Below are positions 29,573 through 34,821 of a DNA stretch of 34,974 nucleotides, piece after piece. Both the position numbers and the translations under genes were made by a program. The notes beneath the pieces were generated by a model. It searched no databases. It had not been told where the DNA came from and worked only from the letters and a program-made list of their open reading frames with translations. Origin of the DNA: Actinomycetota bacterium (GTDB lineage: Bacteria > Actinomycetota > Aquicultoria > CAJVYJ01 > JAUVQD01); NCBI GenBank assembly GCA_030679975.1, contig JAUXSL010000124.1:1-34974 (forward strand), read 5' to 3'. The first letter of the stretch is position 1; each line of letters starts with the position of its first letter.

Positions 29573-31141
29573 GTGGCGGGCATAAGTGGGCACATCGTGG
29601 GATGGTTTCAGAGAAGTCTTGATAAACAAATACGTCTCTTCTATCTGCCGCTCATCACGGGGGTCTCGGTTGCCTTTGCTTTGATGGCTGATTTGCCGAC
29701 TTTCAATAAATCCGGCGTGGTCTTAATCCTCCTCTTGACGGCCATCGTCCACTGGGACTTACGTGACGGAGGCGTCCTTTCCCGTTGGCTATACAGTCAC
29801 GGCGCCGGCTACGATATGCGGAGCTACATCACTGTCAGTGTCGCTTTTGGTTTAGTTACCTTAATCTTGGGCTTTGCTAACGCTTTCTACACCCCTCTGA
29901 TCATGCTTTATTATATCCCGATCGTGCTCTGCGCCATGCGGGGCGGTTATCGGATGACGCTACTCTTTGTCGGCATCCTCGCCGCTTCGACCTCAGCTTA
30001 TTACCAGGTCGGCTATCAAGTCTACGGGCGGGTTTACAAGGAAGGTAATTTGTACTTGTTGCTTTTCCTTGGTCTCGCGCTGGCATCCGGTTTTATCGCC
30101 GACCGCCTGAGAAGGGCGGCGGTCGACTTAAGCGCCTTGTATGAGACCGGCCGGGCGCTCAACTCCACCCTCAATGTTTCCGAGATCTACGCCCTCGCGT
30201 TGAACATCATCTCGATGGACCTGGCGCCCGATGTTTCGGCGCTCTTCATGATAGACAGCCAAAAACATCTGCAGTTACAGGCCCATCGGGGTCTCGATGA
30301 CAGCAGGGTCAAAGAGCTCAGTATTGAGATAGGCCGCGGCCTGATTGGCAAGGTCGCTGAAACGCGCACGCCGATGTCTATCTCCGAAACGAACCGCAAA
30401 TGGCAGCTTAGCTTTGCCCCTGACATAATTTCAGTGATGGCGGTGCCGGTCCGCGTCGGCGAAAAACTGCTCGGAGTGATGATGGTCGGCAAGCGGATGG
30501 CGCATGCTTACGGCTACGAGAATTTGAGGTTCCTGGAGGCGCTCGGCAGCCAGGCTGCCATCTCGATTCAAAACGCCTGGCTTTATCGCCAGACAAAAGA
30601 GTGGGCCTCACTTGACGCCTTGACCGGTATTTACAACTATCGCTACTTCTCCGAGCGCCTTGACAGCGAATGGAGCCGGGCGCTCCGGTACGAGAAACCG
30701 CTCTCATTTATCATGATCGACGTCGACTTGTTCAAGCAGGTAAATGACAATTACGGTCATCTTTGCGGCGACGAGGTCCTGCGGGAGATCGCCCATATGT
30801 TAAAGAAGCATACTCGTGACACGGATATTGTCGCGCGCTACGGCGGCGAGGAATTTGTCATTATCCTGCCGGAAACACATTATCAAGACGCTTATGTCGC
30901 CGGGGAAAAATTGCGCCGGTCGATTTATGAAGCCACGTTTACCGGCGGCAACAACAATCAAAAGATAAAATTGACGATCAGCTTAGGGATAGCCAACTAT
31001 CCGAGCACCGCCTTCAGTAAATCCGATCTTATCTACCAAGCCGACCAGGCCCTCTACCAAGCCAAGATTCAACGCAATACGCTGGCCAGCCCGCTCGATA
31101 CTAGCTGCCAGATTAACCTGAACCCTTCCGAAATCAGCTAA
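29573..31141 (+). CDS. Membrane GAF-GGDEF diguanylate cyclase
   Basis: Multiple TM, GAF-like region, RYGGEEFVIILPE active-site motif. Confidence 0.92.
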   Translation: MAGISGHIVGWFQRSLDKQIRLFYLPLITGVSVAFALMADLPTFNKSGVVLILLLTAIVHWDLRDGGVLSRWLYSHGAGYDMRSYITVSVAFGLVTLILGFANAFYTPLIMLYYIPIVLCAMRGGYRMTLLFVGILAASTSAYYQVGYQVYGRVYKEGNLYLLLFLGLALASGFIADRLRRAAVDLSALYETGRALNSTLNVSEIYALALNIISMDLAPDVSALFMIDSQKHLQLQAHRGLDDSRVKELSIEIGRGLIGKVAETRTPMSISETNRKWQLSFAPDIISVMAVPVRVGEKLLGVMMVGKRMAHAYGYENLRFLEALGSQAAISIQNAWLYRQTKEWASLDALTGIYNYRYFSERLDSEWSRALRYEKPLSFIMIDVDLFKQVNDNYGHLCGDEVLREIAHMLKKHTRDTDIVARYGGEEFVIILPETHYQDAYVAGEKLRRSIYEATFTGGNNNQKIKLTISLGIANYPSTAFSKSDLIYQADQALYQAKIQRNTLASPLDTSCQINLNPSEIS

Positions 31142-31265
31142 AAAACGCGGCCTAAAAGGCATCTGCCGCGTTATCCTCGACCTCGCCTCAGTCACGTACT
31201 TGATGTACGCTCCTTCGCTTCGCCCTTCGTCTGCCTTGCATCTGCACTTTTAGGCCGCGTTTTGG
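31142..31265. repeat. Dispersed imperfect-palindrome intergenic element, copy B
   Basis: AAAACGCGGCCTAAAAGG...GTCACGTACTTGATGTACGCTCC...CACTTTTAGGCCGCGTTTT; outer arms complementary; follows a stop codon. Confidence 0.7.
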
Positions 31266-31330
31266 ACATCGCGGCCGAAAGCCTCGTCGCTTGATTATTA
31301 AACAATTATCGGCTTGAAAATAATTCTGCG

Positions 31331-31984: not shown

Positions 31985-32032
31985 AGGCTAATCCAACGCT
32001 GTTGGCGACGGCGACCGAAAAATAAAGGCCTG

Positions 32033-32113
32033 ACACAACAAGTCGTTCCAGCGGACATTTCAACGCGGCAAAAGCGGCCCCGTTAAAACGCCGCTGAACA
32101 TTAAGCGTTGGGC
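32033..32113 (+). other. attC recombination site 1
   Basis: R'' ACACAAC, L'' GTCGTTCCAGCGG, L' CCGCTGAACATTAAGC, R' GTTGGGC; 81 bp imperfect palindrome. Confidence 0.8.
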
Positions 32114-32486
32114 GACAAAATTAAAAGTTGGAAAACCGACGGCAAAAGCGACCGATCAGTTACTGGCTGCGGTCGCTAAGAAATGAGAGCAGTAAGTGCT
32201 CGGTTGCCTGCAAAAAAGCATCAATTGTTCACTATTGATTAAAGGCTTGGTTACCGGATTATCGTTGAGCCAGTGGCGTGGTTTCCGGCGAGCTCCCTAC
32301 CCTCGAACCTTGCTTCTTCAAGCCGGCGCTGTAGAATGAAAGCTTAGCTAAGAGAGACAAGGGGTTGGCGCTTCAAACCTAGAGTGAGCTTGATTGGCTG
32401 AATAAAAGACTGTGATAATGGTAGGGTGTGGGCCTGCCGACCACAGAAAGAGACGCTTATAAGGGAACAAGGACCTGATTGGAACC

Positions 32487-33011
32487 ATGAAAACATCACC
32501 GCATGGCTCTGTGTCAATGGATGTGTTAAGTCTATATTCGATCAATACTTGGTTGGCTTATGTGATAAATATGAAGTACTTCAGTGACCTGCATTACGTT
32601 TGGTGCGCCCCTTTTTTTACCGGCAACGCTAGAGCGCCCATAGACCTAACAAATCCTGCGTCGTCAATTCCAAGTCAGCGTTATTGGCGATTAGTTGAGG
32701 ATATCAAGAAAGGTGATCGTCACAGCGTACTAATCAAAGAAAATATTTTCGGGATAAAAAACGGTATTCTCGCAAAGGAGAAAGCCAAAATAATTACCCG
32801 GACACAAGGTGATGAAATTCGAAGTATTATACAAGAAGCACAAGTTTCAGATTTTAGACCTTTAATATATATCATTCCATTTACCAAGGCTGTAAGGGAA
32901 TTATGCATTCAACCTCATGTAAAAGAACGGGCGCATCCCTTGGCTGAAGAGTTCGTAATAAAAGAACTTCCGCGGTCAATGTTTGATATAATCGAGCTGG
33001 ATCATGTTTGA
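32487..33011 (+). CDS. Uncharacterised cassette protein
   Basis: 174 aa (or 164 aa from ATG 32517: MDVLSLYSINTWLAYVINMKYFSDLHYVWCAPFF...); overlaps next gene by 8 nt. Confidence 0.8.
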   Translation: MKTSPHGSVSMDVLSLYSINTWLAYVINMKYFSDLHYVWCAPFFTGNARAPIDLTNPASSIPSQRYWRLVEDIKKGDRHSVLIKENIFGIKNGILAKEKAKIITRTQGDEIRSIIQEAQVSDFRPLIYIIPFTKAVRELCIQPHVKERAHPLAEEFVIKELPRSMFDIIELDHV

Positions 33012-33999
33012 ACTCCTTAAGGAAAAATCACTAGAAAAAACAGTTGGGTTTGCGTACCAGTTATCTCGCATTCTGTTGGAGCGAGATTTTCGTGAAGCAA
33101 GCGAAATAGGGCCTTGGCTGATTGGCCTTGATGCGGATGAAAAAAGTGAAGTTAAAGAATTTCTTAGCGAGATAGAAAAGAGAGAAAATCTTACTATTGC
33201 TAATTTGAGCGAGTCAAGGGTGCAGGAGCTGGTTGATGAACTTGCTAAGCTGGTTAAGGATCAAGAGCTACATGAAGTACGCCTAAACAATCACACAGGC
33301 AAAGACTTGCTGGGGGAGCTTCATTCTCGACACAGCCAGTTGACATCTAGTTTGGAAACTGAAGCAGATCGTTTATGCAATGAGGGCGACCTAGTGGGAT
33401 CGGCAGAGCTATACCTTAAAATATTAGGTTTTGTTGCCTTGCCCCAAAATGATTCGAATCAAGTACGACTAAACCTAAAGTGCGGGCGAGTGTTTCATGA
33501 ACTTGGTCAATATAACAAAGCGCTAGATTTCCTTGTAAATGCATACAAGGGCACCGACGAAATTGCAGAGAAAATCGAACCGCTGGGTCTCATAATGTTA
33601 TTACACCTAGACGCCAAGCAACAGCGCCGAGGGCAAGAATCTCTTGAAAAATTAATCAGGTTCACAAACTGGGCTCATAATGAGGATATTGCAAAAGGTC
33701 AGGGCTTTCACTTTATTGGGAGATTCCATTCGCGGCTCGGAAATAATGAGGAAGCATTCCGCTTTTATAGCAGAGCCTATGAGGTTTTTGAAAATCATTC
33801 GTTTGATTTTGGCATCGCTTCGGTAAGCAATAATCTCGGCATACAATATTTTAAGCAAAAAGATTACGATAGTGCCTTAACTTGTTTCGACCGAGCTCTT
33901 AATATATTTAAGCGACTTGATATCAAGAAAGATGAAATGGCAGTGCAAGCAAACATCGAGACACTGCTCCAAGCGCGACAAGCACAGATAGAACCTTAA
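33004..33999 (+). CDS. TPR-repeat protein with helical N-terminal region
   Basis: 331 aa; C-terminal TPRs (GRFHSRLGNNEEAFRFYSRAYEVF, NNLGIQYFKQKDYDSALTCFDRALNIF). Confidence 0.85.
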   Translation: MFELLKEKSLEKTVGFAYQLSRILLERDFREASEIGPWLIGLDADEKSEVKEFLSEIEKRENLTIANLSESRVQELVDELAKLVKDQELHEVRLNNHTGKDLLGELHSRHSQLTSSLETEADRLCNEGDLVGSAELYLKILGFVALPQNDSNQVRLNLKCGRVFHELGQYNKALDFLVNAYKGTDEIAEKIEPLGLIMLLHLDAKQQRRGQESLEKLIRFTNWAHNEDIAKGQGFHFIGRFHSRLGNNEEAFRFYSRAYEVFENHSFDFGIASVSNNLGIQYFKQKDYDSALTCFDRALNIFKRLDIKKDEMAVQANIETLLQARQAQIEP

Positions 34000-34107
34000 C
34001 TGATTCTTTTGAACAAGAAAGACAAGGGTGGCCGTTCAACCCTACAGCTTAGCCCAAACGTTCCCCCCCTCGTTCGCTTCAGTTAAGATTTGTAAAACAA
34101 AGGACGC

Positions 34108-34190
34108 GCCCAACAAATCGTTCCAGCGGATGTTTACCTGCGTCATTTGGTCGCTCCGCAGCTAAACGCCGCTGAATTCAAGCGTTAGCC
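34108..34190 (+). other. attC recombination site 2
   Basis: R'' GCCCAAC, L'' AATCGTTCCAGCGG, L' CCGCTGAATTCAAGC, R' GTTAGCC; 83 bp; arms nearly identical to attC1. Confidence 0.87.
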
Positions 34191-34280
34191 CACAAGAGAA
34201 ATAATCCGCTGTTGCTTGTTTAGGCATTGAAATACACGAAACATATACGTATACTACACGTATACGGAATGGAGGTTTTA

Positions 34281-34511
34281 ATGCAAAAGAAGCTGACCAT
34301 AACATTAGACGAGGAAGTTTATGTGGGCCTTCGCAAGACCATCGGCCCGCGCAAAATCAGCAAATTTGTCGAGGAATTGGTTCGCCCGCACGTAGTGCGC
34401 CCGAATTTAGAATTAGCATACTCTCAAATGTCACAAGATAAAAAGAGAGAGGCAGAAGCCTTGGATTGGGCAGAGATGACTTTCAGGGACATGGCTCGTG
34501 AAAAAAGGTGA
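34281..34511 (+). CDS. Ribbon-helix-helix/MazE-like antitoxin
   Basis: [47 protein letters not shown] before ATG 34281. Confidence 0.85.
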
Positions 34512-34821
34512 GGTTTGGTGGGTTAACTTCGACCCCTCGGTTGGCGGAGAAATTAGAAAGAAACGCCCTGCTGTAATTGTTAGCAATGATGCATCGAACA
34601 AGTTTCTCAATCGCGTCCAGGTTGTTCCTTTAACAAGCAAGACAGATCGTCTTTATCCCAGCGAGGCGCTGGTTGTGTTAGATGGCAAAGAAAGTAAGGC
34701 GATGGCCGATCAGCTAGCTACTGTGAGCAAGTTGCGACTGTTTAAATTTGCCGGCGTCCTCTCGGAAGAAGATATACTCAAAATTAGTGAAACTATCAAA
34801 ATACAATTAGATATTTTCTGA
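34498..34821 (+). CDS. MazF/PemK-family toxin
   Basis: [30 protein letters not shown] ... [10 protein letters not shown]. Confidence 0.95.

What the first reader, a model, noticed from the sequence alone, without database searches (positions are those of the whole stretch)
32107..34190. Uncharacterised two-gene cassette: unknown protein + coupled TPR protein, candidate defence or TA-like system
Cassette 2 is about 2.1 kb, large for a cassette, and carries two ORFs overlapping by 8 nt. The first (MDVLSLYSINTWLAYVINMKYFSDLHYVWCAPFF...GDRHSVLIKE...DFRPLIYIIPF) matches no family I can recognise. The second has a helical N-terminal region and C-terminal TPRs. Flanking cassettes are TA modules, and integron cassettes are known carriers of anti-phage genes, so a conflict role is plausible but unproven.
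Basis: partly seen in the sequence, partly recalled or inferred. Interest (0 to 1): 0.85.

Follow-up and report, generated by a model that had tools for sequence, protein, structure and literature searches.

The report
Unnamed two-gene toxin-like cassette family
A mobile integron cassette carries a two-gene pair from an undescribed family found in several bacterial phyla; it looks like a toxin-antitoxin or phage-defence module, and here the second gene has gained a protein-binding TPR domain, but its activity is untested.

Summary
Cassette 2 (32108-34184) is bounded by two attC sites, in a genome that also encodes an integron integrase. It carries ORF A (174 aa) and ORF B (331 aa), overlapping by 8 nt. 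A matches no family in Pfam, NCBIfam, PADLOC (2023) or PHROGs. It belongs to a real, patchily spread family, found on about 26 loci from Pseudomonadota, Campylobacterota, Verrucomicrobia, Bacteroidota, a cyanobacterial MAG, a rhizobial plasmid and (pro)phages, and absent from the other sampled genomes (348 searched) of the window's phylum. In 22 of 22 other loci with intact A and a readable downstream gene, excluding two divergent viral loci, a small helical B gene follows at -23 to +10 nt. The N-terminal 115 aa of the window's ORF B is a diverged copy of that small B; the TPR tail is unique among 23 B proteins. A is conserved, B variable. Several relatives sit in prophages or beside CBASS, Qat-like and restriction genes; the other recognisable cassettes of this integron are toxin-antitoxin modules. 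Best reading: a toxin-antitoxin-like conflict pair with a sensor-extended partner. A's fold gives only weak ADP-ribosyltransferase-like hints; profile tests against DarT, KptA and RES were negative. Activity is unproven.

The parts
32108..34184 (+). integron gene cassette 2 (2077 nt)
   Evidence: bounded by two attC-like sites sharing a 42-nt, 79% identical block and GTTGGGC / GTTAGCC core sites read in the sequence
32028..32115 (+). attC of the preceding HicAB cassette (left boundary)
   Evidence: imperfect hairpin with complementary core boxes read by eye; genome pattern hit C29:32037; fold energy not beyond shuffles (z -0.11)
34103..34192 (+). attC of cassette 2 (right boundary)
   Evidence: imperfect hairpin; core boxes read by eye; genome pattern hit C29:34112; z -1.39
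32487..33011 (+). ORF A: conserved alpha/beta protein of an undescribed family, putative toxin or effector (start may be 32517)
   Evidence: 35-41% identical homologues in about 26 loci, plus one 25% phage homologue; AF2 pLDDT 84.8
33004..33348 (+). ORF B residues 1-115: conserved B partner domain, putative antitoxin or regulator
   Evidence: hhalign 62% to the B family; hmmsearch 13.3 bits against a maximum of 6.4 in 400 shuffles; same gene position as B elsewhere
33349..33999 (+). ORF B residues 116-331: TPR extension, unique to the window among 23 B proteins
   Evidence: TPR_12 2e-18; about ten helices in the AF2 model; other B proteins are 111-131 aa
31572..31984 (+). neighbouring cassette: HicA toxin and HicB antitoxin
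   Evidence: HicA_toxin 1e-21, HicB_lk_antitox 1.6e-14
34281..34821 (+). neighbouring cassette: small antitoxin-like ORF and PemK/MazF-like toxin
   Evidence: PemK_toxin 1.3e-25; the 76-aa ORF before it has no family match

Best explanation
The cassette is one member of an undescribed, horizontally spread two-gene conflict module. ORF A is most likely a small enzyme that acts as the toxin or effector. ORF B is its co-translated, fast-changing partner, which most likely binds and restrains it. In this copy B has a C-terminal TPR superhelix that probably serves as a sensing or docking arm (for example for a phage or host protein), so that ligand binding or loss of B frees A. Shown: the cassette, the two genes, their conserved pairing, B-domain homology, the TPR add-on, and the mobile and defence-rich settings. 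Inferred: A toxic, B antitoxic, TPR as sensor, and benefit through phage defence and/or cassette-array stabilisation.
For: A-B pairing in 22 of 22 other loci with an intact A and a readable downstream gene, at -23 to +10 nt; two divergent viral loci have an unrelated small ORF there. A is conserved (mean pairwise identity 65%) and B is variable (35%): A exceeds B in all 210 locus pairs and the two correlate at 0.91. Polar or aromatic residues S8, H26, Y27, W29, D67, H69 and E145 (numbered from M11) are kept even in a 25%-identical phage homologue, which fits an active site. B-domain homology. Contexts: CBASS cyclase 2e-124 and phospholipase effector 3.6e-94 upstream in Pedobacter; type II MTase 1.2e-144 downstream in an IMG/VR contig; QatC-like 2.2e-31 on the Sinorhizobium plasmid; NsnA-like 1e-19 in Verrucomicrobia; phage integrases among the neighbours 5 times and phage GPD/portal genes twice each; next to the portal gene in a Christensenellales phage. 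Only the window has it among 348 genomes of its phylum. The other recognisable cassettes here are TA-like: HicAB and PemK by profile; HigBA x2, HicBA, ParD/RelE-like, BrnA-like by eye.
Against: No experiment. A has no recognisable toxin fold (Foldseek best E 0.84 in PDB, 0.3 in viral). Neighbour enrichment was not compared with a matched background; several relatives have ordinary chromosomal neighbours such as GMP synthase and GroEL (by eye). B has no DNA-binding or known antitoxin domain. In two viral relatives (L007, L008) the second ORF is not recognisably B.
Confidence: 0.6

Rival explanations
1. The pair is an ADP-ribosyltransferase-type toxin system that works like DarTG: A is a diverged ART-fold enzyme that uses NAD to modify nucleic acid or protein, and B neutralises it by binding. 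(A special case of the best explanation: it fixes A's chemistry.)
For: The element order in the model, b1(LYS)-a-b2(HYxWCxP)-a-[helical insert]-b3(FRPLL)-a-b4(E145)-b5, follows the ART order (by eye). Top PDB match is KptA/Tpt1, with several more Tpt1/KptA entries in the first 50; top viral match is an ART-PolyVal-like protein. The motif SHEYILSDLPQSAFDIIRI recalls the ART catalytic-Glu strand (by eye, from memory).
Against: All fold matches are insignificant (E 0.84 and 0.3, TM about 0.2-0.33). hhalign against DarT, KptA and RES profiles gives probability 0.1-0.2%. The position of the ART motif-I His/Arg is an invariant Ser.
Confidence: 0.3
2. It is a plain addiction module whose benefit is to stabilise the cassette array, not to fight phage.
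For: It sits between two TA cassettes, and the other recognisable cassettes of this integron are TA modules. TA cassettes as array stabilisers in large integrons is established general knowledge.
Against: Relatives were found mostly in prophages, on a plasmid and beside defence systems. The TPR extension is more than a minimal addiction module needs.
Confidence: 0.3
3. The roles are reversed or different: A is a sensor or nucleotide-binding regulator and the TPR protein is the effector or scaffold; no toxin is involved.
For: A has no proven catalytic fold; TPR proteins act as scaffolds in many conflict systems (general knowledge).
Against: TPR is absent from all other B proteins, which are small helical proteins; the strong conservation of polar residues lies in A.
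Confidence: 0.15
4. It is an accessory or housekeeping function with no conflict role.
For: Several relatives have ordinary chromosomal neighbours.
Against: Patchy cross-phylum spread, phage and plasmid carriage, integrase neighbours, no housekeeping family match.
Confidence: 0.1

Closest known systems
Type II toxin-antitoxin cassettes of integrons (HicAB, HigBA, ParDE/RelBE, MazEF-PemK)
   Same: two short, overlapping co-directional genes in an attC-bounded cassette, flanked by such modules in this very array
   Different: neither protein belongs to a known toxin or antitoxin family; B carries a TPR tail
DarTG and other ADP-ribosyltransferase toxins; KptA/Tpt1 fold
   Same: order of strands and helices and weak fold-search hits; toxin-first order as in DarTG (general knowledge)
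   Different: no sequence-profile match to DarT, KptA or RES; Ser in the motif-I position; partner is not a macrodomain
Anti-phage defence cassettes of sedentary and mobile integrons (Darracq et al. 2025, Kieffer et al. 2025; seen here only as references in PMC12409362 and PMC13092281)
   Same: an integron cassette carrying a candidate conflict gene pair
   Different: no defence-library match; defence not tested
CapRel-type toxin-antitoxin defence with a built-in phage sensor (from memory)
   Same: idea of a sensor module coupled to the antitoxin part
   Different: no homology known; single chain there, two chains here; sensing by the TPR is inference

Membership tests
Integron gene cassette | attC recombination sites at both ends | tested here: met
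   two similar sites 2075 nt apart with core boxes; 7 genome hits against 0 reversed control
Integron gene cassette | integron integrase in the genome | tested here: met
   TIGR02249, 405 bits against cut-off 265, on contig C124; linkage to this array not shown
Type II toxin-antitoxin system | two small adjacent, co-directional genes conserved as a pair | tested here: met
Type II toxin-antitoxin system | recognised toxin or antitoxin domain | tested here: not met
   no Pfam, NCBIfam or PADLOC match for A; window B has only TPR
Type II toxin-antitoxin system | toxicity of one protein, neutralisation by the other | not testable with these tools
   needs expression assays
ADP-ribosyltransferase (ART) toxin, DarT/KptA/RES type | sequence-profile similarity to an ART family | tested here: not met
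   hhalign probability 0.1-0.2% for DarT, KptA, RES
ADP-ribosyltransferase (ART) toxin, DarT/KptA/RES type | ART fold | tested here: inconclusive
   top but insignificant Foldseek matches to Tpt1/KptA and ART-PolyVal
ADP-ribosyltransferase (ART) toxin, DarT/KptA/RES type | motif-I His or Arg and catalytic Glu | tested here: inconclusive
   invariant Glu (E145) present; motif-I position is invariant Ser (correspondence by eye)
Known anti-phage defence system (PADLOC-DB 2.0.0) | match to a model of a defence gene | tested here: not met
   no significant match for A family or window B
TPR protein | tandem TPR motifs | tested here: met
   TPR_12 2e-18, TPR_1, TPR_2 over cut-off; AF2 helical pairs

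The most novel reading that the evidence does not exclude
A founds a new family of toxin or effector enzymes with an unrecognised or extremely diverged ART-like fold, controlled by a modular B partner that can be extended with sensor domains such as TPR, spread by prophages, plasmids and integrons as an anti-phage system.
Probability: 0.35. Interest if true: 0.75.

Novelty: new variant of a known kind. Interest (0 to 1): 0.55.

Why it matters
If A is a toxin, this adds a cross-phylum toxin or defence family missing from Pfam, NCBIfam, PHROGs and the 2023 PADLOC library, with defined invariant residues to test. The window copy would show how a small antitoxin-like partner gains a TPR arm, which bears on how such modules acquire triggers. 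It also supports the view that integron arrays store conflict genes outside the well-studied Vibrio and clinical integrons.

Tried and rejected
Pfam, NCBIfam, PADLOC and PHROGs for A: nothing significant. PDB by sequence or profile: nothing. DarT, KptA and RES by hhalign: negative; the first KptA run held one wrong-strand sequence and was repeated. PARP domain proteins were too rare in the sampled genomes to build a profile. E. coli genomes by DNA: no match. Three viral-contig scans with the larger alignment or L013 got no answer. My own attC scan of the relatives' loci found one self-overlapping candidate only and missed the window's own sites, so it is insensitive and says nothing. No Rfam match in the array. 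Short-Argonaute hits appear in the pooled neighbour scan, but I could not trace which locus they come from, so they are not used. The literature search found no paper describing this pair, which is weak evidence because subscription papers are missing.

Full report
OBSERVATION. The sequence at 31.5-34.97 kb is an integron cassette array that runs to the contig end. Cassette 2 lies between two attC-like sites that share a 42-nt block at 79% identity, spaced 2075 nt; taking the G/TT cut in GTTGGGC (32107) and GTTAGCC (34184) the cassette is 32108-34184. Both sites can fold as imperfect hairpins, but their energies are not remarkable against shuffles, so the boundary rests on repetition and motif. 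Across the genome the pattern AACAANNCGTTCCASC occurs 7 times against 0 for the reversed control, on contigs C1, C6, C25, C29 (three) and C49, and contig C124 encodes an integrase over the integron-integrase cut-off (405 against 265 bits). ORF A (32487-33011) and ORF B (33004-33999) overlap by 8 nt. The cassette is poorer in G+C (43.5%) than the 31 kb of chromosome before it (55.5%).

GENE A IS A REAL, UNNAMED FAMILY. The window protein has no match in Pfam, PADLOC or NCBIfam at E up to 1, and the 23-member family alignment has none of significance in Pfam, NCBIfam, PADLOC or PHROGs. tblastn finds it on a Sinorhizobium plasmid (37%, 1e-24) and in a Christensenellales phage (24%, 6e-10), and pattern scans find 22 loci in public genomes (Pseudomonadota, Campylobacterota, Verrucomicrobia, Bacteroidota, one truncated cyanobacterial MAG copy) and three in IMG/VR. 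In 348 genomes of the window's own phylum only the window has it. So it is spread horizontally and is rare.

THE PAIR IS CONSERVED. In every other locus with an intact A and a readable downstream gene (22 of 22, counting the Sinorhizobium plasmid and merging the Serratia duplicate), except two divergent viral loci, a ~112-131 aa helical gene starts between -23 and +10 nt of A's stop. In the two viral exceptions (L007, L008) a small ORF sits there too, but without recognisable similarity to B. In Duganella CF517 (L021) both A and B are broken. A is much more conserved than B (65% against 35% mean pairwise identity, A above B in all 210 pairs, correlation 0.91), as expected for a pair that travels together with a constrained enzyme and a drifting partner.

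THE WINDOW'S B IS THE SMALL B PLUS A TPR ARM. A profile of the other B proteins hits residues 1-115 of the window's ORF B at 13.3 bits, against a maximum of 6.4 in 400 shuffled controls; hhalign gives 62%. Residues 116-331 score below zero. That second part carries the TPRs. No other B among 23 has it. The homology is modest by score but is reinforced by identical gene position and close adjacency to A.

FOLD AND MECHANISM OF A. AlphaFold2 gives a confident model (pLDDT 84.8, pTM 0.80) with b1-a1-b2-a2-a3-a4-b3-a5-b4-b5 and a low-confidence loop at residues 35-49. Foldseek finds nothing significant. The best PDB match is KptA/Tpt1 (E 0.84, probability 0.33) and other Tpt1 entries recur in the list; the best viral match is an ART-PolyVal-like protein (E 0.3). 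The order of elements and an invariant Glu at the start of b4 resemble ARTs by eye, but the motif-I His/Arg position is Ser, and profile comparison with DarT, KptA and RES is negative. I therefore do not file A as an ART; I keep it as a 0.3 rival about A's chemistry.

SETTING. Neighbours of relatives include a CBASS cyclase and phospholipase effector (L025), a type II methyltransferase (L008), a QatC-like protein (L006), an NsnA-like protein (L018), and an AAA protein weakly matching LmuB (L024); phage-type integrases and phage tail or portal genes recur; the Christensenellales phage copy lies next to the portal gene on the opposite strand. Other relatives have ordinary neighbours, and I ran no matched background, so this is suggestive only. 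In the window's own integron the other recognisable cassettes are TA-like: HicAB and PemK by profile, HigBA (two), HicBA, ParD/RelE-like and BrnA-like by eye. This raises the prior that A-B is TA-like.

VERDICT. A genuine, undescribed two-gene family, most likely a toxin-antitoxin-like conflict module; the window copy is a new variant with a TPR-extended partner. Mechanism inferred, confidence 0.6. Integron cassettes as stores of defence genes are known from the papers cited in PMC12409362 and PMC13092281.

Noticed in passing
genome G000 contig C124:700-1710 and attC hits on C1, C6, C25, C49: The same genome encodes an integron integrase and scattered attC-bounded cassettes that are nearly all toxin-antitoxin modules (HigBA x2, HicBA, ParD/RelE-like, BrnA-like, by eye); the array is split over contigs.
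   Followed up: partly
window 31141-31275: A ~120-nt imperfect palindrome after the GGDEF gene has about 32 matches across this genome at 75-90% identity, an intergenic palindromic repeat family; it also ties the contig to this genome.
   Followed up: partly
L021 6040-6525 and downstream: Duganella CF517 has a stop codon inside A and a frameshift in B: both genes of the pair are decaying together.
   Followed up: no
L028 1689-2820: The Onishia A-B pair is directly followed by a trypsin-like protease gene and a small overlapping gene, possibly a further conflict unit (by eye).
   Followed up: no
L022 201-881: The ORF just upstream of A-B in Pseudomonas sp. 8Z contains an IYRGC...WTTSLDVA stretch that looks like an ADP-ribosyltransferase motif (by eye).
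   Followed up: no
L008 5480-5815 and L007 8546-8914: Two viral relatives keep A but have an unrelated small ORF in the B position, hinting at partner exchange.
   Followed up: partly
window 32108-32486: The cassette has a long (about 380 nt) leader before ORF A with only a weak promoter-like site (32390-32419) and no Rfam match.
   Followed up: partly
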